DNA of 64,000 nucleotides from Sphingobium baderi (GTDB taxonomy: Bacteria; Pseudomonadota; Alphaproteobacteria; Sphingomonadales; Sphingomonadaceae). Position numbers and translations under genes: made by a program. Shown here one piece after another: positions 1 to 13,470 of the stretch. The notes under the pieces were generated by a model. That model did not search any database. It was not told the DNA's origin and saw nothing but the letters and a program-made list of their open reading frames with translations. Each line of letters begins with the position of its first letter. Position 1 is the stretch's first letter. The stretch covers positions 1,568,501-1,632,500 of the forward strand of contig NZ_CP013264.1 of NCBI RefSeq assembly GCF_001456115.1, read 5' to 3'.

Positions 1-782
1 TCGCTGGCGCCGTAGAGATTTTCTATGCGTTTACGGGTTGTGAAACGGGCGTGCCCGTTTTCCAGCGGTGTGACGACGAAGCTCTTTGAATCGAGGAACG
101 GCGCTATGGTTTTCTGATGGACAGTCGCGACATGATAGATTTCCAGAAAATTGTCATAAGCTGTCTTCCAGTTGCACGCGATCTCCGTCCGCAATGTGCG
201 CTTGACCACCATGCGCTCGAACGGGAAGCTCTCCGCTTGTGCGGCGAGCGGGGCGATGAAGTCGGCCAAAGGCTCCGCCGCTTCGTCGAAATTGATGAAG
301 ATGAAACCGCGCCATAGCTCGCAGCGCACCTGGAGCAGCGGCTTTTCCGCCTTGTTCAAACAGGCGAAGTTATGTGCTTCCGGTACGGACCTGAGTTCGC
401 CGTCGCTGGCATAACCCCAGGCATGATAGGGGCAGATGAAGCGCTTTGCGATGCCCGCCGGTTCAGTCACCAACGCCGCGCCGCGATGGCGACAGGCGTT
501 CTTGAATGCGCGGATGGTCCGGTCCTTGCCTCGGCTGAGAATGACAGAGCGATCCATCTCGGTGAACAGCTTGTAAGCGCCGGGTTCAAGCAATTCGCTT
601 TCATGACCGGCATAGAGCCATGTCTTGTTGAAAACATACTGCATTTCCAGAGCAAAGAAGGCCGGATCGCAGTAGCGGGCGGTTGGCAAATCGGGCAGCG
701 CGGGGAAATCCGCCGGATAAGTGATGCGCTTTGCTTCCCGTTCGACGCGCTCAATGAGCGTTGCGGCCGCTTGGCTGTCCAT
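1..782 (-). CDS. Rieske [2Fe-2S] oxygenase alpha subunit, 3' end cut by window edge
   Basis: The first 260 residues of an aromatic-ring-hydroxylating oxygenase large subunit can be read; the frame stays open to base 1. The Rieske ligands are C97, H99, C117 and H120 (CRHRG ... CPYHAW). The start of the catalytic domain carries NFLEIYHVATVH, whose H217 and H222 should bind the mononuclear iron. The ATG at 782 is preceded by AGGAG about nine bases upstream. The enzyme should use dioxygen and electrons from a ferredoxin to hydroxylate or demethylate an unknown substrate in the cytoplasm. The next gene upstream is a TonB receptor on the same strand, so uptake and attack may be linked. It is the first of three Rieske oxygenases here. 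Family is certain; substrate is unknown. Confidence 0.93.
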   Translation of the reverse strand, partial: MDSQAAATLIERVEREAKRITYPADFPALPDLPTARYCDPAFFALEMQYVFNKTWLYAGHESELLEPGAYKLFTEMDRSVILSRGKDRTIRAFKNACRHRGAALVTEPAGIAKRFICPYHAWGYASDGELRSVPEAHNFACLNKAEKPLLQVRCELWRGFIFINFDEAAEPLADFIAPLAAQAESFPFERMVVKRTLRTEIACNWKTAYDNFLEIYHVATVHQKTIAPFLDSKSFVVTPLENGHARFTTRKRIENLYGAS

Positions 783-950
783 GTCACTCCACTCCTGAAT
801 TCAACGGCACTATCCCTGCGTGCTTTCCGGCATCTTACCAGTGGGGGCGATAGGGTAACAGCGCCGAAGATTGACGCACCGTCCGTCTTGCGCGGCGCTG
901 GGCGAGTTATTGCGATTGCTCGTCTTGAATAGTCATACGTGGCTTGAGTT

Positions 951-987
951 GCGAGGGAAGGGCGCGGCAACGGCGTCCTTCCCTCGC
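951..987 (-). terminator. Hairpin after the TonB receptor gene
   Basis: Perfect 11-bp inverted repeat (arms 951-961 and 977-987, GCGAGGGAAGG and its complement) with a 15-base loop, starting 19 bases after the TonB receptor stop codon. There is no T-run after it on the minus strand, so it may end transcription only weakly or protect the 3' end of the message. Confidence 0.45.
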
Positions 988-1005
988 CATCGCTGACGAA
1001 AGACT

Positions 1006-3690
1006 TCAGCGTTCCGCCGAGCGACCGAACCGTGCCCGAAGCTGCACACCGTACACGCGCGGATCGCCATAGACATAAGGTGTCGTACCGAGCTGGGAGC
1101 TGACGAGGTTGCCCGCGCCGGTCCTGTATGTCTCGTTGAACAAGTTCTTCACGAAAATGCTGAGGTCGACTGCATTGTCCATGATATTGTTCCAGTCGAG
1201 ACGCAGATTGACGATGGCGTAGGGAGATTGCTCCTCTGGCGTGAGCGAGAAAAGAGCATCGTCCGAGACGCTCGTACGAGACTGATACGACACATTGCCA
1301 GCCAATATGAAGTCACCCGTGTCACCTGCATCATATTGATATCGCGCCGCGACGTCCAACTTGTGCTTTGGCGCACCCGTTATGGGGGTACGAGATCGTT
1401 CTATGATCGCTCCGTCTGACGGACGGACGATCACGCCCGGAAAACTCCTGAACTTGGCATCGAGATAGGCGTAATTGACATTGACCGTGAAGGCGGGGGT
1501 GAAACGGATGACTTGTTCGAGTTCAAGGCCGCGCGATCGCAATTTTGCGGCATTCTCGATCTGGTTCGATGCGGTCTGGCCGTTGAAGAAGGAAGTGGCG
1601 CGATGCAGGCCGGAGAAATCCGCCTGGAACAGCGCCAGATTGGTCCGCATGCGGATGCCGCCCAGATTATAATCTGCCTTGATGCCCAATTCATAGTCAG
1701 TGACTGTTTCAGGCTTGAACGTCGGCAAAGCCGCTGCCACCCCGTTCTGGGCCGGCAGGATCGACTGGATGTTGATGCCTCCCTGCTTGAAGCCCTTGCG
1801 CGTGGTGCCATAAACCATGACATCCGGCGAGAATTTATAGTCGAGCGAAAAAGTATAGCTGTCCGCCGTTTGCTTGAGGGAAGCGGGGATCGGATCGTCC
1901 GTCGTGATAGCCGGGTTGTCCGGTGCGACGATCACGCCCGTGGGGGGGAGAAGCGCGTTCACCGCCAGAAGCGATTGTTTGACAACGCTGTACCGATAGC
2001 CGCCGGTCAAACGCAGGCCTTCGAAGCCGAAGGCGGCGAAATCGATGGTCGCCTGCCCGAAATAACCGGTTTGCGAAGATTTATAGTCGCGATTGTAGCC
2101 AGTCGATATGCCCGGAAGTCCCGCCGGAACCGTGAAGGCGCCGTTCAGCGTCTGGAAGATGGCCGGATAGTTGAGATAGGCGTTCACGTTGGAATGTTCC
2201 GTGAAGTAGCCGATCATCCAGTCATGGCTGCCGCCGATCTGGCCGGACACCTGTGCTTCTTCCGACCATACGTCGAACCAGTCATTCTTGCCGGCGCCAT
2301 AATCCCTGACATTGACCTGTCCGGTGCAAAGCGTGGGCGTGCAGTTCGGGTTGCTGACATCGAGGTCGTTATAGACCACGCCTGAGCCGACGCCGCCCTG
2401 AATCTCCCGGACAACTTCGGAGTGAAGATTGCGTGTCGTGGAAAAGATGTTCTTGAAGCTGGTGTCGCCCAGGAATCCAAGCTCGCCGAAATTCAGCTCG
2501 GTAGTGTTGATCAGCTGTTGGACCTGTGAACGAAGAAAGTTCGGCCTTGTGGTCGCAAGCCGCCGGACGCTTCCGCCCGCCGCGATGCGCGCTGCTTCTC
2601 CGTCAAGGCTGGCGCGGACGCCGTTGATGAGGGCAATTCGCTCGTTAATGCAGTTCGCAACCGACTTGCCGCTGGCTGCATAGAGCGCCGTGATGCCGGG
2701 ATTGGTGCAAAGGCCAGCCACCGATATATAACCATAACCGCTGGCGGTCGCCTCGGTTACTCCAGGCGTAACGCCCAGGATGCCGGCTCCCACCCGCGTG
2801 TCGAGCAGCGATCCGGTTATGACCGATCCGCCGGGCAGGCGCGGATCCACAACGCGGCGTGCCACGCCATTGGGTTCGTAGGTGCCAAGAACGCTCGCCG
2901 TTCCATTCTCCTTGATGTTCACATCCGAGAAGATGGTGGTGCTCGTCAGCCAGTCGGTCGGTCGCGCCAGCACGCTGATCCGGTAGGACGAACGGTCGCG
3001 GTCATCCAGATCCTGTCCGGTTGTAAGACTTTTCGAGAAGCCGTCATGATAGCTGTAGTTGCCGGCCACGCGGATCGCGAGCCGGTCCTCAAAGATCGGC
3101 ACGTTCACCGCGCCGGTAAACTCCCGGGAACTGTAGTTGCCCAAGGCTGCCTCGAAGAACCCGTCAAACTCGCCCGAAGGCGCCTTGGGGGTCAGCAACA
3201 CCGCGCCGCCAGTCGTTGAGCGGCCGAACAGAGTACCCTGCGGGCCCTTCAGAACCTGGACTGACTCCAGATCGTAGAAAGTGATGTTGGACCCCCCGGA
3301 GGCGGAGTTGGTTTGCTGCGGCACATCGGCGAAATAAGTGACCACCGATGGCGAGCTCCCGAAGGTCGCGCCCTGGCCACGGATGAAGTAAAGCACGTCG
3401 TTACGTTGCGAACTGCCGGTGGCGGCGACAATGCCGGGCGTCGAATTGCCGAGATCATATGGCGTGGTAATCGCCTTTTCACGCAGGACATCGGCCGTAA
3501 TCGCAGTGATCGCTACAGGAACGGACTGAAGGCTTTCAGCCCGCCGGCGCGCGGTGACGACGATATCCGATATTTCGTTATCGCTTACAGATTGAGTGGA
3601 GGTATTGCTTTGTGCATAAGCACCCGGAGACGCTGCGAATATTGCACTGATACCGGCAAGCAGAGCCTTTTTGGGAATTTCCCTCATCAT
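1006..3690 (-). CDS. TonB-dependent outer-membrane receptor
   Basis: An 894-residue receptor of the type abundant in sphingomonads. It has a signal peptide (MMREIPKKALLAGISAIF, cleavage near AYA-Q), then ISDIVVTARRR and a plug domain with the motif LKGPQGTLFGRSTTGGAV, then a 22-strand-type barrel to the C-terminus. The start is placed at ATG 3690 (or ATG 3687) because GGGGAGG lies directly before it; a longer frame to 3786 has no such site and would bury the signal peptide. It should import a substrate across the outer membrane using TonB energy, probably the compound handled by the neighbouring oxygenases. It lacks the usual C-terminal phenylalanine, ending RSAER after RARFG. Substrate unknown. 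Confidence 0.93.
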   Translation of the reverse strand: MMREIPKKALLAGISAIFAASPGAYAQSNTSTQSVSDNEISDIVVTARRRAESLQSVPVAITAITADVLREKAITTPYDLGNSTPGIVAATGSSQRNDVLYFIRGQGATFGSSPSVVTYFADVPQQTNSASGGSNITFYDLESVQVLKGPQGTLFGRSTTGGAVLLTPKAPSGEFDGFFEAALGNYSSREFTGAVNVPIFEDRLAIRVAGNYSYHDGFSKSLTTGQDLDDRDRSSYRISVLARPTDWLTSTTIFSDVNIKENGTASVLGTYEPNGVARRVVDPRLPGGSVITGSLLDTRVGAGILGVTPGVTEATASGYGYISVAGLCTNPGITALYAASGKSVANCINERIALINGVRASLDGEAARIAAGGSVRRLATTRPNFLRSQVQQLINTTELNFGELGFLGDTSFKNIFSTTRNLHSEVVREIQGGVGSGVVYNDLDVSNPNCTPTLCTGQVNVRDYGAGKNDWFDVWSEEAQVSGQIGGSHDWMIGYFTEHSNVNAYLNYPAIFQTLNGAFTVPAGLPGISTGYNRDYKSSQTGYFGQATIDFAAFGFEGLRLTGGYRYSVVKQSLLAVNALLPPTGVIVAPDNPAITTDDPIPASLKQTADSYTFSLDYKFSPDVMVYGTTRKGFKQGGINIQSILPAQNGVAAALPTFKPETVTDYELGIKADYNLGGIRMRTNLALFQADFSGLHRATSFFNGQTASNQIENAAKLRSRGLELEQVIRFTPAFTVNVNYAYLDAKFRSFPGVIVRPSDGAIIERSRTPITGAPKHKLDVAARYQYDAGDTGDFILAGNVSYQSRTSVSDDALFSLTPEEQSPYAIVNLRLDWNNIMDNAVDLSIFVKNLFNETYRTGAGNLVSSQLGTTPYVYGDPRVYGVQLRARFGRSAER

Positions 3691-4033
3691 CGTCCTCCCC
3701 ATGATCGAATCATTTCTCGTGACTTGTCGCCGCGCCTGCAATGTGAGTGGAAGGGCAGCCGGTCTGATCTTCTTGATTGTTATCAATCCTGCACAACCGC
3801 GCGGCGTAATGCAACGTAAAAATCATGCACGAAAATTCAAAGTTTGATTGAGAAGTCAAGGTGGAGCGGAAATCAAGGCTTTGATCTTCCCTTTTCTAGG
3901 ATTATGGCGGCAGGCATTGCACGGCGCAGAGGAGGGCGTGTCGCTCCTAATGCGTAAAGATATATATGGGCTAAAAGGCTCGATGCGATCTGGCTTCATC
4001 ACTGCGGCAACGCCTTGCATCGAATGGGTTGGG

Positions 4034-4046
4034 CATATCATATATG
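4034..4046. promoter_or_regulatory. AT-rich palindrome CATAT-CAT-ATATG
   Basis: A 13-bp inverted repeat with 5-bp perfect arms and a 3-bp centre, 344 bases upstream of the TonB receptor start. It resembles in size and composition the palindrome at 15996-16008. GntR/FCD proteins bind short palindromes of this kind and one is encoded at 18730-19482, but a link is only a guess. Confidence 0.25.
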
Positions 4047-4320
4047 GCGTGTCGAATAATGCACGACGTGGCGGATTGTCATTCGGGGCCGCAGATGGCC
4101 GCCCAACAGGGCGATGTCGACGCTGCCGTGAAGGTCGCTCGTCAACCTGTAGACTGCGTTGCTATCAAGCAGTCCGGCTGGAACCGGAAGGGGAGCAAAT
4201 TAGCTATCCAGAAATACATTGAATAAGGCGTGTGACGGTGAAGCTTTAGTTCGCAGTCCGGGATCGCTCTGGCTTTGGCCGGGCGGTCATTATTTCTGTA
4301 TCCCGCACCAATTTCCCGGG

Positions 4321-4342
4321 GCATCATCTATATAGATCATGC
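4321..4342. promoter_or_regulatory. 22-bp palindrome in the intergenic stretch
   Basis: Arms GCATCATCTAT and ATAGATCATGC form an inverted repeat with one mismatched pair; the central 12 bases ATCTATATAGAT are fully self-complementary. Such length and symmetry fit an operator for a dimeric regulator. It lies about 630 bases upstream of the TonB receptor start and directly after the stop of a short minus-strand frame, so its target gene is unclear. Confidence 0.4.
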
Positions 4343-4483
4343 TCAACGCTCAGCGGGGTGGCGGTCGAACAGTTCCTGCTGATCCATGGCGCTGTGCCGG
4401 TAGCGTCCATGTGCGAAAGGCGGCATGACCGACGCATGATATTTGCGTGGCAAGCGCGTATCGATGAGGAAGGCGATCAGTTC
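4343..4483 (-). other. Short coding-like frame, possible gene remnant
   Basis: Directly after the SDR stop the minus strand reads about 46 sense codons, from GAACTGATCGCC to TGA at 4343-4345. It includes MPPFAHGRYRHSAMDQQELF, which looks protein-like. There is no clear start codon or ribosome site. It could be the tail of a decayed gene or a short ORF starting at the internal ATG (27 codons). I do not recognise it; weak support. Confidence 0.2.
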
Positions 4484-5307
4484 TTACCATCTCCATCCTG
4501 TGCTGCCATATGGGCAAACAGATCGCGGAACTCCGCCAGTGAAGGGGCGTGATTGGAATAGCCTCCATCGACATGCAAATTCTGACCGGTCGTATAGCGG
4601 GACTCATCCGACGCCAGAAATATGGCAGCCTTCGCGCAGTCTTCCGGCGCGCCGATGAATGGCGTCAGCTTGTGACGCAGCATGAGCTGGCGGATCGGTT
4701 CGGGCATATTGTCCTCCAATGCGCCTGAGAGCACCAAACCTACCATCAACACATTGGCGCGAATGCCGAATTTTCCATATTGCGCCGCAATATTGTAGGT
4801 GAGGTTGTGCACACCGGCTTTGGATGCGCCATAAGCGGTCTGGCCGATATCGCCTTGCAGCGCTTTGGTGGAACCAGTCGTGATGACGTTGCCACCACCC
4901 TGTCTCAGCATATGGGGGATCACATGCTTGGCGCAAAGCATGGGGCCGCGAAGATTCACGGCCATGGTGCGGTCCCATAGATCGACGTCCATGTTTACCA
5001 CATCACGATCCTGCATCATGATGTCGCCAGTCATCGCAGCATTGTTGTGCAAGACGTCGATTCGACTATAGGTCTGGATCGCATAATCGACCAGGCCCTT
5101 TACGGCGGTTTCATCCGAAATATCGGCTGCAAAGGGATGTGCATTGCCACCCGCGGCAACGATATCGGCCGCAACCTTCTCCGATGATTTGCTCTGGCTT
5201 GCGACAATGACTTTGGCGCCTTCCCGGGCATATGCCTCGGCACAGGCTTTACCGATTCCTGATCCCGCGCCGTTGATGAGGATGACTTTACCGTCGAGCC
5301 TTTTCAC
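4477..5307 (-). CDS. Short-chain dehydrogenase/reductase (SDR), last gene of the adh-Rieske operon
   Basis: A 276-residue classical SDR that should oxidise an alcohol or reduce a ketone with NAD(P). The Rossmann motif GAGSGIG is at residues 13-19, the NNAA motif at about 88-91, and the catalytic set is S146, Y159 and K163 (YGASK). It is a clear relative of the SDRs at 14272-15102 and 15114-15926 (shared layout NNAA.T...M and VDGG near the end, extended C-terminal tail). It lies 72 bases behind the PF10118-like gene on the same strand and should be the last enzyme of the six-gene operon that starts with the zinc alcohol dehydrogenase. Substrate unknown. Confidence 0.9.
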   Translation of the reverse strand: MKRLDGKVILINGAGSGIGKACAEAYAREGAKVIVASQSKSSEKVAADIVAAGGNAHPFAADISDETAVKGLVDYAIQTYSRIDVLHNNAAMTGDIMMQDRDVVNMDVDLWDRTMAVNLRGPMLCAKHVIPHMLRQGGGNVITTGSTKALQGDIGQTAYGASKAGVHNLTYNIAAQYGKFGIRANVLMVGLVLSGALEDNMPEPIRQLMLRHKLTPFIGAPEDCAKAAIFLASDESRYTTGQNLHVDGGYSNHAPSLAEFRDLFAHMAAQDGDGKN

Positions 5308-5379
5308 GTTTCTGTGTATCCCTCTGAAAATTGGACGCCCGTTTGCAAAAGATGCAGGTCAGGATGGCAGGGACGAAAT

Positions 5380-6255
5380 TCAGGCTGCGACGACTTCCCT
5401 ATCGGCGTCATATTTCTTTTCGAACTGCTCCAGATAGGCACGATAGCCTTGAGGTTCCCGTCGCTTGGCGGGGTCGTAGAAGGGTGAGCAAATCTGGAAG
5501 AAGAAACTCACGAAGTGGCGGCCCATCACTTTCCGGGCATATTTGTCGCGCACGAGTGATTCTTTCAATTCGGCTGGCGTCATCTTCGCGCGATCATGCT
5601 CCAGCAGTTTCTTTGAAACCATCATCTGAAATCGACCGAGATGGACCAACGCATAGAAGTAACCATATATTCGATAGAAATAGGCGAAGATCGGATTTAG
5701 GCCGCTGAGTTCATGATAGACATCCGAGCATACGGTACGATGCTCGAACTCTTCGGCCAAATGCCATCGCCACATGTCCGTGGGCTCCGCATCGGCGCCC
5801 TCCAGCAGTTCATTATAATCCTCGAAATAGAGCTGGCAGGCCGTCGCGCTCAGCGACTCGAAGCCTTCGCAATAGGCGAGATTGAAGCGCAGTGATTTCG
5901 TTTCAAGAAATCGCTTATATGTCGCCTCATAGTCTCTCTCAATCGGCTTCAGCCAGGCATAGCCCAGTTCGTGCATACGCCTGTTGAAGGCGATGTGTTG
6001 CTTGCAATGCTGCATCTCCTGCTTGATGAAGATATCCAGCTCTTCTACCAGGCGCGTCTTGGAGGGCTCGATAAGGGGCTTCGCCTTTATCATCACCTTC
6101 AAGAGATAGGGTTCGATATAGGCGGGAATCAGCGAGGCCGCGTTGGCACGCTGTGCAAACTCCCCATTGGGAGCCCAACGCGCGCGAATGTTCGAGAAGT
6201 CGAACTTGGGGAACCTGACTTTCATCTTATTGCCTTTATGCACCTTGGGAGCCAT
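5380..6255 (-). CDS. Ferritin-like metal-dependent hydrolase family protein (PF10118-like)
   Basis: A 291-residue protein that resembles the predicted metal-dependent hydrolase family PF10118. It is mainly helical and carries a spaced set of metal-ligand candidates: E80, H83 and H87 (QEMQHCKQH), E130 (YCEGFES), and E168/E169 with H172 (HLAEEFEH). That pattern is typical of a di-iron four-helix bundle. The true reaction is not established for this family. A second ATG (6225, MKVRFPKF) is preceded by AAAGG and may be the real start. It sits 32 bases behind the Rieske gene in the same operon, so it may act on the Rieske product or help supply iron; both are inference. Confidence 0.8.
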   Translation of the reverse strand: MAPKVHKGNKMKVRFPKFDFSNIRARWAPNGEFAQRANAASLIPAYIEPYLLKVMIKAKPLIEPSKTRLVEELDIFIKQEMQHCKQHIAFNRRMHELGYAWLKPIERDYEATYKRFLETKSLRFNLAYCEGFESLSATACQLYFEDYNELLEGADAEPTDMWRWHLAEEFEHRTVCSDVYHELSGLNPIFAYFYRIYGYFYALVHLGRFQMMVSKKLLEHDRAKMTPAELKESLVRDKYARKVMGRHFVSFFFQICSPFYDPAKRREPQGYRAYLEQFEKKYDADREVVAA

Positions 6256-6287
6256 CGCAAGACGCCGAATATACCCTCGAGCCTGCT

Positions 6288-7553
6288 TTATTCCGCCGCT
6301 TCCGCGCTATGTTGCCCGGGAAGCATCCCGCCGCCCGCCAGATAGGCTTCGTAGTCACGCGTGAACATGCGGAGCAATGGTTCGTTCTCGCCGAAATTCT
6401 GTACCTTTTTGCCGCCGGTTTCCAGCCCGATCTGCTGGAGGCGTGACATCGCCATATCCTCGACAACGACATCGCGCGTCGCCGCCAGCGTGTGGGCCAT
6501 CGCGAATTCCTCGCGCAGGTTCTTCGGCGCATGACGGCTATAGATTCGTACTTCCATCCGCATGCGGTTGTGGCTCAGCGGCCAGAACTGATAGAATAGA
6601 TATCCGTTTGCCAACGGCTGAAGCGAAATATTTGGAAAGATCGTGATGGTCTCGGTTCCGAAGTTCGGGATATTGAGCCGATTGATCCCCGGATGCTCGT
6701 AGAAACCCGCCCGGCCCTCGGCGATGGCCTGTTGATCGGGGGCGGATGTCGGCAGCATCTGGGAATAGACCCAGCTCAGGACCGGCGCGTCCGGGTTATA
6801 GTCGAAATTGCGCTGCACCGTTCCCGCGCTGTGCGGCCCGAACTGTTTGATGTCGAGATAGTTGAGATGTGGGTTCTCTTGAGGAACCACAGCCGGACGC
6901 AGCGTCTTTTGATGCAATATGGCGACATGGTAACCCTCGTTGAAGGCATTGACGAGGTTCTTCCAATTGCAGTCGATCTCATCGGTCACTTGCACGTAGA
7001 AGGGGAACTGGTCGAACGGCGCTCCATCCAGCATCACGTCCAGGCCTGCGAGGAATTCGCGGAGCGAAACTTCCGGCGTGTCGGCGAAATTCAGGAAGAT
7101 AAACCCGTTCCATGTGTCGAGATGGATCGGCGCAAGTCCGTTCTTGGCCTTGTCCACATGTGGGAAGTCCTGTGCAGATGGCACCGCGTTTAGGGAGCCG
7201 TCGATGCGATACAGCCATGCGTGATAGGGACAGCGGAACGTCAGCGCATTGCCCCGCTCCTCGCAGACAAGCGCCACTCCCCGATGCGAGCAACTGTTGT
7301 GGAAGGCGCGGACCTGCCCGTCCTTTCCGTGTGCGATGATGACATTCGCGCTGAGGGTCGGTATTTTACGCACCACGAAATCGCCGGGATTTCCAACCTC
7401 CTCGACCCGTCCGACCATGAGCCATGCGCGTCGAAAGATCATCGCCTGCTCGCGCTGGAAATATTCCGGCGAGGTATAATATTCCACCGGCACTGTGCCA
7501 TCGACGAGGCCCATGTCGTGGGCCTTGGTCATATATTGGCTGATGTCGACCAT
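6288..7553 (-). CDS. Rieske [2Fe-2S] oxygenase alpha subunit
   Basis: A complete 421-residue Rieske oxygenase. Rieske ligands are C88, H90, C108 and H111 (CSHRG ... CPYHAW). The mononuclear iron histidines are H209 and H214 in NEGYHVAILH. Length and motifs fit the monomeric-type alpha subunits that act on aromatic acids, phenols, quaternary amines or similar compounds. It lies in the middle of the six-gene operon after two small paralogous genes and before the PF10118-like gene. No beta subunit, ferredoxin or reductase gene is nearby, so it must borrow electrons from partners encoded elsewhere. It differs clearly from the Rieske proteins at 1-782 and 11250-12527. Confidence 0.95.
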   Translation of the reverse strand: MVDISQYMTKAHDMGLVDGTVPVEYYTSPEYFQREQAMIFRRAWLMVGRVEEVGNPGDFVVRKIPTLSANVIIAHGKDGQVRAFHNSCSHRGVALVCEERGNALTFRCPYHAWLYRIDGSLNAVPSAQDFPHVDKAKNGLAPIHLDTWNGFIFLNFADTPEVSLREFLAGLDVMLDGAPFDQFPFYVQVTDEIDCNWKNLVNAFNEGYHVAILHQKTLRPAVVPQENPHLNYLDIKQFGPHSAGTVQRNFDYNPDAPVLSWVYSQMLPTSAPDQQAIAEGRAGFYEHPGINRLNIPNFGTETITIFPNISLQPLANGYLFYQFWPLSHNRMRMEVRIYSRHAPKNLREEFAMAHTLAATRDVVVEDMAMSRLQQIGLETGGKKVQNFGENEPLLRMFTRDYEAYLAGGGMLPGQHSAEAAE

Positions 7554-7586
7554 ATGTTATCCTCTTCCGCCAAGCGGTTTGCCGCT

Positions 7587-7934
7587 TCAATGTGGCCGGT
7601 AGCCTACCCATTCCATTTTGACGCTGTGCGGGAATGGAGCATAGGGCACATGCGGCTGTTCGAAGATTTCCACCGCCTGCGCGGCCTCAGTCAGGCCCAA
7701 TATCACGCGCAGCAGCAATGCCTCCTGCTCCGGCAGCGCAATCGGATCGAACCCATCGAGATAGGAAAATATCTCCTCCAGACGAGGAGCGAGCGCGGCG
7801 TGGAACGCTTTCAAATCGGAATAGGCCAGTTCCTGCCGTTTCCTGTACCGTTCATCCTGCGTGTGCAGATTGCCCCAGGTAGCCACGAAAGGCTGTAGGA
7901 AGGCAAATTGCTCTGGAAGCTGCAATGTCGTCAT
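7587..7934 (-). CDS. Small protein of unknown family, tandem paralogue A
   Basis: 115 residues, no signal peptide or membrane segment, mostly helical by eye. It is a clear paralogue of the next upstream gene (8008-8352). Shared blocks include TWG.L, ERY..RQ, DLKAF, APRL.EIF, LD.F, LP..EALL, LGLTEAA, and the near-identical end VPYAPFPH...EW..Y. I do not recognise a named family. It lies 33 bases before the Rieske gene in the same operon, so a role tied to the oxygenase (subunit, electron-transfer helper or substrate carrier) is possible but unproven. Confidence 0.8.
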   Translation of the reverse strand: MTTLQLPEQFAFLQPFVATWGNLHTQDERYRKRQELAYSDLKAFHAALAPRLEEIFSYLDGFDPIALPEQEALLLRVILGLTEAAQAVEIFEQPHVPYAPFPHSVKMEWVGYRPH

Positions 7935-8007
7935 GATGATGCTCGATCAGGTCTGGAATAAGATGGCTGGCGGCGAACTTTGAGGGATGCCCCCGGACGC
8001 TGCAAAC

Positions 8008-8352
8008 CTATTTATACTCGTTCCATTCGATGGCCATGTGATGCGGGAAGGGGGCATAGGGCACGCCCGGTTGATCGAACACCTCGATCGCCATCGCTGC
8101 CTCGGTCAGGCCCAAGGCGGTACGGTAGAGGAGAGCCTCTGAAGCTGGCAGGCGGTCCATCGGGAACTTGTCCAGATGGTCGAAAATCTCTTTCAGGCGC
8201 GGCGCAGTGGCGTCGTAGAAAGCCTTCAGATCCTTCATGCTGCTCTGCTGGCGGAAGAGGTAGCGTTCCGCCTGATCCTCAAGCTTGCCCCACGTTCCGG
8301 CATAGGGCGCAAGCGCTTCGAACCCTGCTGGAAGGGAAACTGCCTCAATCAT
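8008..8352 (-). CDS. Small protein of unknown family, tandem paralogue B
   Basis: 114 residues, paralogue of 7587-7934. The most conserved part is the C-terminal half: APRLKEIFDHLDKF, LPASEALL, LGLTEAA and VPYAPFPH followed by EW. The pair lies between the zinc alcohol dehydrogenase and the Rieske oxygenase, all on the minus strand with gaps of 234, 73 and 33 bases. No metal-binding cysteine pattern is present, so it is not a ferredoxin. Function unknown; a heterodimer with its paralogue is conceivable. Confidence 0.8.
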   Translation of the reverse strand: MIEAVSLPAGFEALAPYAGTWGKLEDQAERYLFRQQSSMKDLKAFYDATAPRLKEIFDHLDKFPMDRLPASEALLYRTALGLTEAAMAIEVFDQPGVPYAPFPHHMAIEWNEYK

Positions 8353-8586
8353 AAATCATCTCTCCCCAATTTCGCGCCATTCTCTATGGCTGGCGCTGAA
8401 ATCGTTCTTTCCGAGCAGCCCCGGTCGCTGGTCTGGGTGCCGGCGCCATGTGATACTGAGACTATGCACAATCCGGTCTGTATTGGCGAGGCTTCGATAT
8501 TGACGCCGCGTCCACTGCATCCAAAGAGAGGTGCGCGAGCGATCGGCATATCGGGTTGCGGCGCATCGACAGCCCGGAACATCAGG

Positions 8587-9612
8587 TCACCAAGGCTTGA
8601 TCATCACCTTGCAGTGATTGTTGCGGCCGCGCAGTTCCTCGAACATGGCAGGCGCATTGTCGAGCGGGACGGTGTCGGTAATCATGGCTCGCGGTTCCAC
8701 ATGCCCGTTGTCGAGCGCGCCGATGGCGATCTCGAACTCGCGTGTGTCGTACATGTTGGTATAGCGGATCGTCGCCTCTTTCATCATGGCTGGCATGGCC
8801 GAGAAGGTGTCTGGCATCCAGCAGAAGCCGGGTGCGGCGATCATGCCCCGGCGACGAACCGCGGAGACCGCCTGATCGAGCGAACCGGCGACGCCAGCAC
8901 ATTCGAATACAATGTCGGCGGGCCTCCCGAGCGCTTCCGCGCTTTGTTCCGCAAAGGTGCGCCCTTCCTCGGGCAGGATGAATGCGTCGACGCCAATTGC
9001 CCGCGCGATCTCCTCTCGGCGGTCAGAGGTGGCGGACATCACGACTCGTTCAGCGCCGGAAAGTCGCGCCCAATAAGCGGCGGCCAGCCCGATCGCCCCT
9101 GCGCCCATGACGAGCACGCGATCGCCGCTCTGGATTCCCGAAGCGCGCACGGCACGCAATGACACTGCCAGCGGCTCCACCAACGCTCCATCGTCGAAAC
9201 TCAGCGAACGTGGCAGGTTCACGCACCAGAGCGCGTTAGTCAGTAAATATTCGGCATAGCCCCCCGTCACTCCAAATGCGCCGAACATGCCGAATGCCGT
9301 GCAACCGACCGCGTCGCCCGTCTTGCAGGCCACGCATTCGCCACAGGTCAGGAAAGGCAAGACCGCGACATGATCGCCAATGGCAAGGTTCTCGACACCG
9401 GTGCCCGTCGCCACCACTTCGCCCGCAACCTCATGACCGGGAACCGCGCCGTCGTCGAAAGCGTAGCTGTGTCCTTCCGCCATGTGCAAGTCGCTGCCGC
9501 AGATGCCGCAACGATGCACTTTTACAACTACTTGCCCGGCCGCAGGCGTCGGATCGGCTACCAGTTCGATTCCGAGTCGTCGCCTGTCCGTGCGGAAAAC
9601 TGCAGCGCGCAT
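8587..9612 (-). CDS. Zinc-dependent medium-chain alcohol dehydrogenase
   Basis: A 341-residue MDR enzyme that should oxidise an alcohol with NAD(P). The catalytic zinc site begins at CGICGSD with the following GHEVAGEV; the structural zinc motif CGECVACKTGDAVGC is present; the Rossmann motif is GAGAIGLAAA. It is the first gene of the minus-strand operon running to 4477, and a TetR gene is divergent from it across 258 bases, which suggests TetR control. It resembles the L-threonine/sorbitol dehydrogenase-like branch, but the substrate cannot be assigned. Confidence 0.92.
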   Translation of the reverse strand: MRAAVFRTDRRRLGIELVADPTPAAGQVVVKVHRCGICGSDLHMAEGHSYAFDDGAVPGHEVAGEVVATGTGVENLAIGDHVAVLPFLTCGECVACKTGDAVGCTAFGMFGAFGVTGGYAEYLLTNALWCVNLPRSLSFDDGALVEPLAVSLRAVRASGIQSGDRVLVMGAGAIGLAAAYWARLSGAERVVMSATSDRREEIARAIGVDAFILPEEGRTFAEQSAEALGRPADIVFECAGVAGSLDQAVSAVRRRGMIAAPGFCWMPDTFSAMPAMMKEATIRYTNMYDTREFEIAIGALDNGHVEPRAMITDTVPLDNAPAMFEELRGRNNHCKVMIKPW

Positions 9613-10678: not shown

Positions 10679-11086
10679 ATGTCGGTGACGATTGATCGCG
10701 ATGAAGCGATGCGCCTGGCCCAGTTTTGGGCAAGTGTTTCGGAAGAGCATAATACGGACAAGTTCCAGACTGTTCTGCATGATGATTTCACCATGTGGTA
10801 TAACTTCGATCCGCAATATCGCTCGCGCGCGGAATTCGTCGAGACGTTGAAGGCGGCGCATGCGATGTTCGAGAATCAGAAGAACGAAGACCTCAAGATC
10901 ACGATAACCGAGCGAGGCTTCATCTTGCAGGCGACGATGACCGGCGTTCTGGCCGGAGAGAACATCTCCTCACCCTATTGTTTCGTCGCCGAGGTTCGCG
11001 AAGGCAAGGTTTATCGGGGGGAGGAATATTTCGACACGGCACAACTCACCAAAAAGGCGGGCCGACCGGGAGAAGGTATGGTCTGA
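10679..11086 (+). CDS. NTF2/SnoaL-like protein
   Basis: 135 residues with the small cone-shaped NTF2 fold pattern (W near residue 17, HDDFTMWYNF near 38-47, GEEYFDT near the end). This fold includes ketosteroid isomerases, limonene-epoxide hydrolases and ring-hydroxylase beta subunits. GGAGG touches the ATG directly, with no spacing; the in-frame GTG at 10685 lies six bases after GGAGG and may be the true start. It shares the pattern E/D-Y-F/M/L-D near its end with the NTF2-like proteins at 17608 and 18043. It precedes the third Rieske gene by 163 bases, so a role in the same pathway is likely. Exact function unknown. Confidence 0.8.
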   Translation: MSVTIDRDEAMRLAQFWASVSEEHNTDKFQTVLHDDFTMWYNFDPQYRSRAEFVETLKAAHAMFENQKNEDLKITITERGFILQATMTGVLAGENISSPYCFVAEVREGKVYRGEEYFDTAQLTKKAGRPGEGMV

Positions 11087-11176
11087 AGGGGGCTGGCGCC
11101 GGGCCGAATGTTGACGGTGTGTAAAGCGGCGAACTTTGGATGTCCCTCGCGTCTCTGCTATATCGCTCTCGAACAA

Positions 11177-11200
11177 GATGAGCGGCGCCGACCGCTCATC
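11177..11200. promoter_or_regulatory. 24-bp perfect inverted repeat upstream of the third Rieske gene
   Basis: Arms GATGAGCGG and CCGCTCATC are perfectly complementary around a 6-base spacer. It ends 49 bases before the Rieske ATG. It could be an operator, or a leader hairpin. A second, smaller repeat (CGCCA-N6-TGGCG) follows at 11213-11228. Confidence 0.45.
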
Positions 11201-11249
11201 ATAGGAATCGCGCGCCACTCAATTGGCGACTGCGTAGAGGAGACCTGAT

Positions 11250-12527
11250 ATGGGTATGCAGCAGCCAGTCTTGACGCCTTTTGACCTGGGTACTGGTGAA
11301 CTGCGGCCTGACCCCTTCATCATGGAAACCGGCAAGGTCGATCTCGGCGTGTACTACAAGCAGGAGCGGTTCGAGGCGGAAAAGGAAATTTTCGGCCGCG
11401 TTTGGTTGAACGTCGCCGAGACGGCCGAATTGGTCAATCCCGGCGATTGGATTGTCCGCGAGGTCAAGGTGCGGTCGGTTTCGGTGATCATCGTGCGTGG
11501 CAAGGATGGTGAGATCCGCGCCTTTCACAATATATGTTCGCATCGCGGGATGAAGCTCGTCTGGGACGAGAAAGGCCGCGGGGGCAAGTTTTCCTGTCCC
11601 TATCACGCCTGGATGTTCGACTGGGCAGGGGATCTCATCAATATCCCTGACGAAGCCTGCTTCAGCTATGTCGACAAGAAAGAGAGCGGCCTTACCCCCA
11701 TCCGCTGTGAGACTTGGGAAGGTCTGATCTTTATCAACCTTGATCTGGAAGGTACGCAGTCGCTGGCCGACTATCTGGGGCCGCTGACCGAACGGCTCAA
11801 GAACGTCCCCTTTGCCAGCTATCCTTACACGGCTCGTGTCGGCTCGATGATTGACGCCAATTGGAAGCTCGCGATTGAGGCGCAATGCGAGGCTTATCAC
11901 GTCCGGGCACTCCACGCCCGTACCGTCAGCAAGATGCTGTCGTCGACGGACAACCCCTTTGTTCATCCGCTCCACGTCGAATATCTCGGCGCGCATCGGA
12001 TGAATTCCGTACCGCGCAATCCCGACTTCGAATTATCACCAGCCAAGCTCGTACAGGCATTTTCCTTCATGAACGCGCAGCAAATGGTGATCGCCGACAC
12101 CGGCGCTCAGGATAAGCCGGAGGAAACATTTGCCGGTCATGAGGATATAAACCCCACGCGCTCTAACTTCTGGGGTAACGATCAATTCGTGCTTTACCCT
12201 CACTTTATCTTTCACCTCTCACTTGGCGGCTGGTGGCTGCATCGTTTCTGGCCGATCGCGGCGAACAAGTGCTACTGGGAGGCGGTCTATCACTTTGAAC
12301 GGCCCCAGAGCCTGCGGAACCAGTTCGCTGTGCAATATTCACTGGCGCTGAATCGCGATACGTTGATGGAAGACAATCTCGCACTTGTGCAACAGCAGAT
12401 GGTGATGGAAAGCGGCGCGAAGAAAATCGTGCAGTTCGGTGAGCAAGAGGGCCTCTGCAAGCATCTGGCCGCAGTTTCGGAAGCTGCCGCGAACGATATC
12501 GCAGCCGCGAGGATCGCAGCGGAATAG
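11250..12527 (+). CDS. Rieske [2Fe-2S] oxygenase alpha subunit
   Basis: A complete 425-residue Rieske oxygenase, the third in the island. Rieske ligands are C97, H99, C116 and H119; the iron histidines are H217 and H222 in AQCEAYHVRALH. The start ATG has GAGGAGACC before it. The protein has a longer N-terminus and a different C-terminal half from the two minus-strand Rieske proteins, which suggests a different substrate or step. It follows an NTF2-like gene, a fold also used for Rieske beta subunits, but that protein is shorter than usual beta subunits. Two SDR genes follow on the same strand. No electron-transfer partner is adjacent. Confidence 0.95.
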   Translation: MGMQQPVLTPFDLGTGELRPDPFIMETGKVDLGVYYKQERFEAEKEIFGRVWLNVAETAELVNPGDWIVREVKVRSVSVIIVRGKDGEIRAFHNICSHRGMKLVWDEKGRGGKFSCPYHAWMFDWAGDLINIPDEACFSYVDKKESGLTPIRCETWEGLIFINLDLEGTQSLADYLGPLTERLKNVPFASYPYTARVGSMIDANWKLAIEAQCEAYHVRALHARTVSKMLSSTDNPFVHPLHVEYLGAHRMNSVPRNPDFELSPAKLVQAFSFMNAQQMVIADTGAQDKPEETFAGHEDINPTRSNFWGNDQFVLYPHFIFHLSLGGWWLHRFWPIAANKCYWEAVYHFERPQSLRNQFAVQYSLALNRDTLMEDNLALVQQQMVMESGAKKIVQFGEQEGLCKHLAAVSEAAANDIAAARIAAE

Positions 12528-12660
12528 ACTGGCTATCGGAAAAAGCCGCGTCGTCAAGCGAGTGCGCTGCTTTTCGACTGCACCGGTACAGATCGGATTC
12601 CGCGTCTGCTGGAAATGTGGCGGCTGTTCTTATGCGGTGCAATCCTACCAAAGGGCGAAC

Positions 12661-13470
12661 ATGGATCTCGGAATCGCAGGAAAAAGGGCGTTGGTGACTG
12701 GCAGTACGTCCGGCATCGGCGCGGCGACAGTCAGGATGCTTGCAAGCGAAGGGGTAAAGGTCGTCATCCATGGTCGTAACGCCGAGCGGGCGGAGGCCAT
12801 TCGCTTCGAAATCGAAGGAAATGGCGGCGATGTGGCGATTGCCTTGGGCGATCTCAGTAACGATCAATCAGCCGAAATGGTGATGCGGATGGCGCTATCG
12901 GCCTATGGCGGCATCGATATTCTTGTTAACAATCTGGGCCATTATGAGCCGTTCGCGCATGCCTGGACGGACGCGACACCTGATCAATGGGCCGAAACCT
13001 ACCAATCGAATGTCATTGCAGCGGTCCGGACGGTGCGCGCCTGCGTCGGTGGGATGAAGGCGGAGGGTTGGGGGCGCATCATCAATATTGCGAGTGGCGC
13101 CTATACCGAACCACCACCGGATTTCCCGACCTATGGCCCGTCTAAAGCGGCTCTCGTCAACATGTCGGTGGGACTCGCGAAGGCATTGGCGAACACCGGC
13201 ATTACGGTAAATACGATCAGCCCCGGCAATGTACTGACCGAAACCCTGAAGGGTTATCTGCCGGCTATTGGAGAGGCGAACGGCTGGGAGGAGAAGGACC
13301 TCGATGGCCTAGAGCGGCGGTTCGCCCGGCAATGGCGCAGCCTGGTCAACCGGACAGGGCGGGTCGATGAGATTGCCGCGCTCATCTGTTTTGTTGCGAG
13401 TGTCCATTCATCATACATCACCGGCACTAACTATCGGATCGACGGCGGTTCGCACGCCACGCTGAACTGA
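12661..13470 (+). CDS. Short-chain dehydrogenase/reductase
   Basis: A 269-residue classical SDR. GSTSGIG is at about residues 14-20, the NNLG motif at 90-93, and the catalytic set is S145, Y158 and K162 (YGPSK). The ATG at 12661 is chosen because the SDR fold begins there (MDLGIAGKRALVTG) and AAAGGG lies before it; the longer open frame upstream is not SDR-like. It follows the Rieske gene by 133 bases and precedes another SDR by 43, so the three probably form one transcript. Substrate unknown. Confidence 0.9.
   Translation: MDLGIAGKRALVTGSTSGIGAATVRMLASEGVKVVIHGRNAERAEAIRFEIEGNGGDVAIALGDLSNDQSAEMVMRMALSAYGGIDILVNNLGHYEPFAHAWTDATPDQWAETYQSNVIAAVRTVRACVGGMKAEGWGRIINIASGAYTEPPPDFPTYGPSKAALVNMSVGLAKALANTGITVNTISPGNVLTETLKGYLPAIGEANGWEEKDLDGLERRFARQWRSLVNRTGRVDEIAALICFVASVHSSYITGTNYRIDGGSHATLN

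What the first reader, a model, noticed from the sequence alone, without database searches (positions are those of the whole stretch)
4477..9612. Six-gene operon joining a Rieske oxygenase with two unknown small paralogues and a ferritin-like protein
On one strand lie a zinc alcohol dehydrogenase, two ~115-aa paralogues of no family I recognise, a complete Rieske oxygenase, a PF10118-like putative di-iron protein and an SDR. No beta subunit, ferredoxin or reductase is present. Conserved small proteins directly before the oxygenase gene suggest a dedicated accessory, such as an unusual subunit, electron-transfer helper or substrate binder, and thus a possible new type of Rieske system. The metal-protein partner is also unusual.
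Basis: partly seen in the sequence, partly recalled or inferred. Interest (0 to 1): 0.72.

Follow-up and report, generated by a model that had tools for sequence, protein, structure and literature searches.

The report
New helper protein of Rieske oxygenases
A family of small, unnamed proteins is encoded almost always right beside one branch of Rieske oxygenases, enzymes that bacteria use to begin breaking down aromatic and other stable compounds, and it looks like an overlooked dedicated partner of those enzymes.

Summary
Six minus-strand genes lie at 4477-9612: alcohol dehydrogenase, two 54%-identical paralogues (114 and 115 aa), a complete Rieske oxygenase alpha subunit, a PF10118 protein and an SDR. 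The small proteins form a family with no convincing Pfam, NCBIfam or PDB relative; every database name seen was 'hypothetical protein'. The family is tied to one Rieske subfamily. Of 99 hits in the loci collected, 86 lie directly beside a same-strand Rieske gene and 7 are the second paralogue, one gene further out. Among 397 genomes, the 33 with the small family are the same 33 with that Rieske subfamily. From the Rieske side, 66 of 71 genes have a small gene within 200 bp. The two trees match (r 0.80; none of 2000 within-genome swaps reached it), and 30 of 82 pairs overlap by 4 nt. AlphaFold gives a confident four-helix fold; a read-through fusion of small B with its Rieske scored pTM 0.90, which my estimate gives for a docked pair, without a control. 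Most likely it is a non-catalytic subunit or dedicated chaperone, not an electron carrier. Function is untested. The six-gene operon is not conserved as a whole; the core is small A-small B-Rieske.

The parts
7587..7934 (-). small B (115 aa): member of the unnamed family, directly upstream of the Rieske gene and in its reading frame
   Evidence: No Pfam/NCBIfam/PDB-sequence match; 83 homologues; four-helix model, pLDDT 92.2
8008..8352 (-). small A (114 aa): paralogue, 54% identical to small B; A and B form separate clades over 7 loci
6288..7553 (-). Rieske oxygenase alpha subunit (421 aa); nearest solved relative by sequence and fold is CntA
   Evidence: PF00355 + PF00848; C88 H90 C108 H111 H209 H214 D366 invariant in an alignment of 58
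5380..6255 (-). PF10118 protein (291 aa) with two ExxH motifs (read from the sequence); the only PF10118 match found in this genome
   Evidence: within about 1.5 kb of the block in 4 of 7 A+B loci
4477..5307 (-). SDR (276 aa), variable neighbour
8587..9612 (-). zinc alcohol dehydrogenase (341 aa), variable neighbour; 234 nt before small A
1006..3786 (-). TonB-dependent receptor downstream; a close TonB receptor homologue lies within 7 kb in 38 of 82 pairs
11250..12527 (+). second Rieske alpha, nested in the same subfamily but without a small gene; SnoaL-like gene upstream (10679-11086)

Best explanation
The small proteins are a new family of non-catalytic, helical partner subunits of one branch of Rieske oxygenases. 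The alpha subunit carries the ligands for both catalytic metal centres. The small protein is made beside it, in about a third of cases from overlapping genes, and docks on it: four helices form the body, and the C-terminal tail (about residues 92-112) is predicted to become better ordered and form a strand on binding. Its most likely job is to complete the oxygenase component structurally (stability, oligomer shape, shaping the active-site entrance), the place that a beta subunit fills in alpha3beta3 enzymes. In the window's branch an old duplication gave two such partners, A and B, both kept. Shown here: the family, its linkage, co-occurrence, co-divergence, protein-level constraint and predicted fold. 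Inferred: physical binding, stoichiometry and the role in activity. The substrate is unknown.
For: Linkage: 86 of 99 small-family hits are directly next to a same-strand Rieske gene (two of these Rieskes are cut or split) and 7 more are small A, one gene further. In 82 distinct adjacent pairs, with start codons picked by rule, the gap is at most 60 nt in 80 and exactly -4 nt in 30. Co-occurrence: the 33 of 397 family genomes with the small family are the same 33 with the Rieske subfamily. Rieske side: 66 of 71 paired within 200 bp; the 5 unpaired ones are all in genomes that have a small gene elsewhere. Mirror trees: r 0.795; 1000 full permutations reached at most 0.109; 2000 swaps among paralogues of the same genome had mean 0.562, maximum 0.665. 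The 82 paired Rieskes sit in one clade that holds only 6 of 40 sampled unpaired ones. Converse check in plasmids with the Rieske as query: a small gene is adjacent in 16 of the 17 best rows (H60-H76 of 49 records), including an Azospirillum ORF that none of the four small-protein plasmid queries had found. Structure: small B alone pLDDT 92.2, pTM 0.80, residues 101-110 at 74; read-through fusion with Rieske pTM 0.90, residues 101-110 at 82 with a new strand 106-110, against about 0.73-0.78 by my estimate if undocked. dN 0.15-0.27 between small genes of A+B loci while dS is saturated. Not redox: no conserved Cys.
Against: No experiment. Tight linkage alone can produce mirrored trees. The loci were mostly collected through small-gene hits. 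The fusion fold had a covalent linker, only 6 jointly read rows, no mismatched control and no visible interface error; small residues 113-115 stay below pLDDT 50 in it. Three members have no same-strand Rieske within reach (L075, L104, and L085, where IS6100 copies flank the block), and L061 sits beside a P450 with the Rieske 4.4 kb off. Some subfamily Rieskes, including the window's second one, have no adjacent small gene. The census profile was built from paired Rieskes, at most 4 Rieske and 11 small candidates per genome were scored, and the cut-off was set at a score gap seen afterwards (387, then 321 for a fragment, then 280 bits).
Confidence: 0.6

Rival explanations
1. Dedicated assembly or folding chaperone: it binds the nascent or apo oxygenase (folding, Rieske cluster or iron loading) and leaves the mature enzyme.
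For: All linkage, coupling and co-divergence evidence fits equally. [quoted passage not shown]
Against: Most studied Rieske oxygenases are made without such a partner (recalled); co-divergence with each alpha paralogue inside one genome suggests a specific lasting fit; no metal-binding motif.
Confidence: 0.2
2. Effector or coupling protein, like MmoB of soluble methane monooxygenase (recalled): it binds transiently and gates oxygen activation, substrate entry or electron delivery.
For: Small, no sign of a cofactor, nearly one per subfamily Rieske gene, conserved W20, R29, R33 (69 of 69) and E89 (65 of 69), and a tail that is better ordered in the fusion model. It coexists with ferredoxin and/or reductase genes.
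Against: No effector of this kind for a Rieske oxygenase showed in the listings of my eight paper searches; the structure comparison was inconclusive.
Confidence: 0.12
3. Electron-transfer component replacing ferredoxin or reductase.
For: No ferredoxin or reductase was recognised in the window operon.
Against: Best Cys column 6 of 69, best His column 31 of 69; clusters with the small gene also hold ferredoxin and/or reductase genes in Acinetobacter, Paroceanicella, Rhodococcus, Cupriavidus and Azospirillum.
Confidence: 0.03
4. A bystander gene of the pathway (substrate carrier, lyase, regulator) that is merely co-transcribed.
For: One member lies beside a P450 and some have no Rieske in reach.
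Against: Other neighbours vary (homologues of the window's SDRs within 7 kb in 35 and of its TonB receptor in 38 of 82 pairs at E 1e-8), whereas the small gene stays adjacent on either side of the Rieske gene (57 after, 25 before); matching genome sets in 397 genomes.
Confidence: 0.05

Closest known systems
CntA/GbcA-type alpha-only Rieske monooxygenases
   Same: Among solved structures the window Rieske is nearest to CntA in sequence and fold (target-normalised TM 0.81-0.84 for CntA chains shown); GbcA is its best NCBIfam model, far below cut-off. The residue at the bridging position is Glu (E206, 90% or more of 58; 'bridging' recalled).
   Different: CntA works with the reductase CntB and, as far as I recall, has no small helical partner.
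alpha3beta3 ring-hydroxylating dioxygenases (beta subunit PF00866)
   Same: A small non-catalytic protein encoded beside alpha.
   Different: Beta subunits have an NTF2-like fold (recalled); the small proteins are modelled as helical and match no such Pfam model.
NdmCDE of caffeine degradation
   Same: A Rieske-type oxygenase with a non-catalytic third protein, NdmE (PMC10380055, passages).
   Different: NdmE is a GST-superfamily protein and NdmC lacks the Rieske cluster domain (same passages); here the alpha subunit is complete.
Skatole/indole-induced cluster of Acinetobacter piscicola p38
   Same: RHO alpha (gene1684, up with indole and skatole), styrene monooxygenase (1687) and ferredoxin (1690), both up with skatole, have the gene spacing of plasmid cluster L087, where a small gene follows alpha (PMC11434297, passages).
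   Different: That gene1685 is a small-family member is inferred from numbering only; the passages seen do not mention it.

Membership tests
Rieske oxygenase alpha subunit (window 6288-7553) | Rieske and catalytic domains | tested here: met
   PF00355 56.6 bits and PF00848 96.6 bits, above cut-offs
Rieske oxygenase alpha subunit (window 6288-7553) | Rieske cluster ligands C-x-H ... C-x2-H and 2-His-1-carboxylate (motifs recalled) | tested here: met
   C88, H90, C108, H111, H209, H214, D366 invariant in 58 sequences
Rieske oxygenase alpha subunit (window 6288-7553) | oxygenase activity | not testable with these tools
   needs an assay
RHO beta subunit (PF00866) for the small proteins | match to the Pfam model | tested here: not met
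   No Pfam match for either window protein at E 1; PF00866 not among the 12 families touched by any of 69 members at E 0.1
RHO beta subunit (PF00866) for the small proteins | NTF2-like alpha+beta fold (recalled) | tested here: not met
   Model of small B has four helices and no strand, pLDDT 92.2; a predicted model, not a solved structure
2Fe-2S ferredoxin for the small proteins | conserved Cys/His cluster ligands | tested here: not met
   Best Cys column 6 of 69; best His column 31 of 69
GST-like NdmE for the small proteins | GST sequence or fold | tested here: inconclusive
   One of 69 members touches GST_C_3 at E 0.031; structure comparison does not decide
MmoB-type effector for the small proteins | alters rate or coupling of the oxygenase without a cofactor | not testable with these tools
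   needs an assay

The most novel reading that the evidence does not exclude
A new class of obligatory helical partner (a 'gamma' component) defines a whole subfamily of Rieske oxygenases, seen beside Rieske genes from sphingomonads to Acinetobacter, Burkholderia, Azospirillum and Rhodococcus. It works as a coupling or gating protein whose tail folds onto the alpha subunit, and in the window's branch it has split into two specialised copies, A and B.
Probability: 0.25. Interest if true: 0.88.

Novelty: new variant of a known kind. Interest (0 to 1): 0.74.

Why it matters
Rieske oxygenases start the breakdown of many aromatic, heterocyclic and pollutant molecules. If a whole subfamily needs a 115-aa partner that annotation calls 'hypothetical protein', weak or failed expression of such enzymes on their own would have a simple cause, and a new kind of subunit would join the classification of these enzymes. 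The idea is directly testable by co-expression.

Tried and rejected

Spread: in a phylum draw only the window's own genome matched, 1 of 299, so the family is rare outside its bacterial family; other members came from plasmid records and from protein names of Rhodococcus, Mycobacterium and Cycloclasticus (no Rieske context seen for the last two).

Paper searches: (eight; CC-licensed PMC only). Their listings (titles and abstract starts) show no described partner of this kind; this is weak evidence that it is unpublished. Beyond listings I saw only passages of PMC11434297 and PMC10380055.

Unpaired Rieskes were checked for an unrecognised small neighbour: profile search with filters off found none above 6 bits in L151-L156 or at the window's second Rieske, though L156 begins at the Rieske gene; L061 has only the small gene 4.4 kb off. 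The window's second Rieske and L153 share a SnoaL-like gene upstream instead. A shared transcript by promoter/terminator scan: no signal above shuffles.
Full report
WHAT IS THERE. The six ORFs exist as described. The window lies in a 4.58 Mb genome, contig 1 at 1568501-1632500. A genome of the same genus, G237, has a contig of the same length (409,024) as Sphingobium fontiphilum NZ_JACIEB010000003.1, so the host is probably a Sphingobium relative (inference). Small A and B are 54% identical. The genome holds five small-family copies: the two here and one beside each of three other Rieske genes (L042, L043, L044).

A FAMILY TIED TO ONE RIESKE SUBFAMILY. The first protein search gave 83 homologues, a profile search 248, of which 120 were listed, and a profile of distant members 65. 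None listed has a precomputed Pfam domain and all source names seen are 'hypothetical protein'. In the loci I collected, the A2 profile hits 99 stretches: 86 adjacent to a same-strand Rieske gene, 7 small A copies one gene further upstream, 3 without a same-strand Rieske (L075, L085, L104) and 3 odd (L061 at 4.4 kb; two pieces of a broken copy in L097). The loci were mostly fetched through small-gene hits, and the counts include near-identical loci and two cases with a cut or split Rieske (L078 second copy, L105). After removing duplicates and cut Rieskes, 82 adjacent pairs remain: 57 with the small gene after and 25 before the Rieske gene, gap at most 60 nt in 80 of 82, exactly -4 nt (ATGA type) in 30.

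CENSUS. In 397 family genomes the small family occurs in 33 (75 places, at most 11 candidates scored per genome). A profile of 58 paired Rieskes (A3), run on a draw of the same size, shows a score gap: 71 genes at 387 bits or more, one contig-end fragment at 321, then 280 and lower. The 71 genes lie in 33 genomes, and the two sets of 33 are the same. 66 of 71 have a small gene within 200 bp on the same strand; the other five are in G094 (4.4 kb), G237 (two) and G172 (two). G172 also carries an orphan small gene (L075), which may serve in trans (inference). Limits: only 4 Rieske candidates per genome were scored, the profile is built from paired Rieskes, and the cut-off was set after seeing the gap. 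The window's second Rieske is not in the list, probably for the candidate limit. From the small side, 69 of 75 places have a listed Rieske within 600 bp; one of the six others (G088) does have one that the limit hid (L059).

CONVERSE CHECK. The window Rieske was searched in plasmids (49 records, best place of each). I checked the best 17 rows (H60-H76): in 16 a small gene is adjacent, by profile hit on the fetched locus or, for H63 and H65, by coordinates of the small hits. Most of these records had already come up with small queries; the new one is Azospirillum ramasamyi, where the 116-aa ORF directly after the Rieske gene scores E 2.7e-22 against the profile. The exception is N. resinovorum pSA2, whose Rieske scores lower with the subfamily profile (323 bits). 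Lower rows were not checked, except H87, a lin plasmid whose cut Rieske (397 bits) is parted from the small gene by IS6100.

CO-DIVERGENCE. Trees of 82 small proteins and their Rieskes correlate at r 0.795; full permutation maximum 0.109 (1000); swapping partners only among paralogues of one genome gives mean 0.562, sd 0.027, maximum 0.665 (2000), none reaching the observed value. Linkage itself can cause this, so it shows lasting partnership, not contact. In a tree with 40 unpaired Rieskes (picked by hand from listed PF00848 matches of 11 genomes) all 82 paired ones fall in a clade that holds 6 unpaired ones (support 0.75 at that node, 0.95 one node deeper, midpoint root). So the partnership looks ancestral to the subfamily, with some later losses (inference).

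TWO PARALOGUES. Seven loci (window, L006-L009, L045, L047) have A-B-Rieske in the same order; A and B each form one clade (supports 0.97, 0.95). That means one duplication with both copies kept. dN to the window copy is 0.15-0.27 for the small genes and 0.13-0.17 for the Rieske while dS is 1.1 or more, saturated, and in one comparison not computable, so constraint is clear but its ratio is rough.

STRUCTURE. Small B alone: helices 8-20, 26-35, 38-59, 69-91, then a looser tail (pLDDT 92.2, pTM 0.80; last blocks 89, 74, 74). Small B and the Rieske gene are in frame, separated by 33 nt after the stop codon, with a second stop codon in between, so the natural DNA can be read as one chain of 548 residues. 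With 88 aligned rows, six of them read this way (window included), the model has pLDDT 92.0 and pTM 0.90; residues 91-100 and 101-110 are at 94 and 82 and residues 106-110 become a strand; residues 113-127 (end of small B and linker) are below 50. My estimate of pTM for an undocked small protein is about 0.73-0.78, and 0.90 needs a mean error of roughly 2.5-5.5 A between the parts. The Rieske part resembles CntA most. W20, R29 and R33 are invariant in 69 sequences, E89 is kept in 65, and position 105 is hydrophobic in 99%. No conserved cysteine: not an iron-sulphur carrier.

CONTEXT AND FUNCTION. Clusters outside sphingomonads contain the small gene in addition to ferredoxin and/or reductase genes: Acinetobacter (alpha, small, SnoaL-like, indole/styrene monooxygenase, flavin reductase, SDR, ferredoxin, a 2Fe-2S protein of reductase size), Paroceanicella and Azospirillum (alpha, small, two cupins, NTF2/SnoaL-like, a ferredoxin-size Rieske protein), Rhodococcus and Cupriavidus (PDR/VanB reductase), Variovorax WDL1 (with a 2Fe-2S ferredoxin-domain protein and 2,5-dihydroxypyridine dioxygenase). 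In A. piscicola p38, RHO alpha gene1684 is upregulated with indole and with skatole, and ferredoxin gene1690 with skatole (PMC11434297, passages); the gene spacing matches the Acinetobacter plasmid cluster, so gene1685 is probably a small-family gene (inference). The window's own substrate is unknown; the TonB receptor and dehydrogenases suggest uptake and further oxidation of an alcohol product (inference).

OPERON. Within 7 kb of 82 pairs (some cut by contig ends), homologues of the window's TonB receptor at E 1e-8 occur in 38, of its SDRs in 35, of its ADH in 9 and of its PF10118 protein in 4, the window's own locus included. PF10118 has a single match in this genome and lies within about 1.5 kb of the A-B-Rieske block in window, L007, L008 and L009, on the other strand in the last three; L006 and L045 end at a contig edge near the small genes and L047 is a 7-kb contig.

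VERDICT. Its mechanism is open; a non-catalytic subunit is the best bet (0.6), then chaperone (0.2), then effector (0.12).

Noticed in passing
L085 (pISP4) 3937-8195 and L160 (pMI1) 63-5990: On lindane plasmids linC lies in a TonB receptor-linC-EthD-small gene block flanked by IS6100, with a cut Rieske gene beyond one IS6100: linC may have come from a Rieske/small cluster.
   Followed up: partly
window 10679-13470: The second Rieske, nested in the same subfamily, has a SnoaL-like gene upstream and an SDR downstream but no small gene; L153 (G237) has the same arrangement.
   Followed up: partly
L061 8500-10141: A small-family gene directly follows a cytochrome P450 gene; the nearest Rieske is 4.4 kb away.
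   Followed up: partly
L075 9642-9998, L151 and L152: Genome G172 has an orphan small gene and two unpaired subfamily Rieskes: possible partnership in trans.
   Followed up: partly
L104 6989-7330: A Cupriavidus necator C39 plasmid carries a small-family gene with no Rieske gene found within 7 kb.
   Followed up: no
L097 9248-9988: A small gene is hit in two pieces in different frames beside a partial Rieske: it looks like a broken copy.
   Followed up: no
L078 8553-10743: Apparent tandem repeat of SDR and small gene with a partial Rieske beside the second copy.
   Followed up: no
L105 5726-6971: Sphingomonas sp. NBWT7 plasmid: the Rieske gene before the small gene is annotated as two ORFs.
   Followed up: no
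window 3-782: A further Rieske alpha gene runs off the left window edge (PF00848 match at C1:1568149-1568721), so three Rieske genes lie within 13 kb.
   Followed up: no
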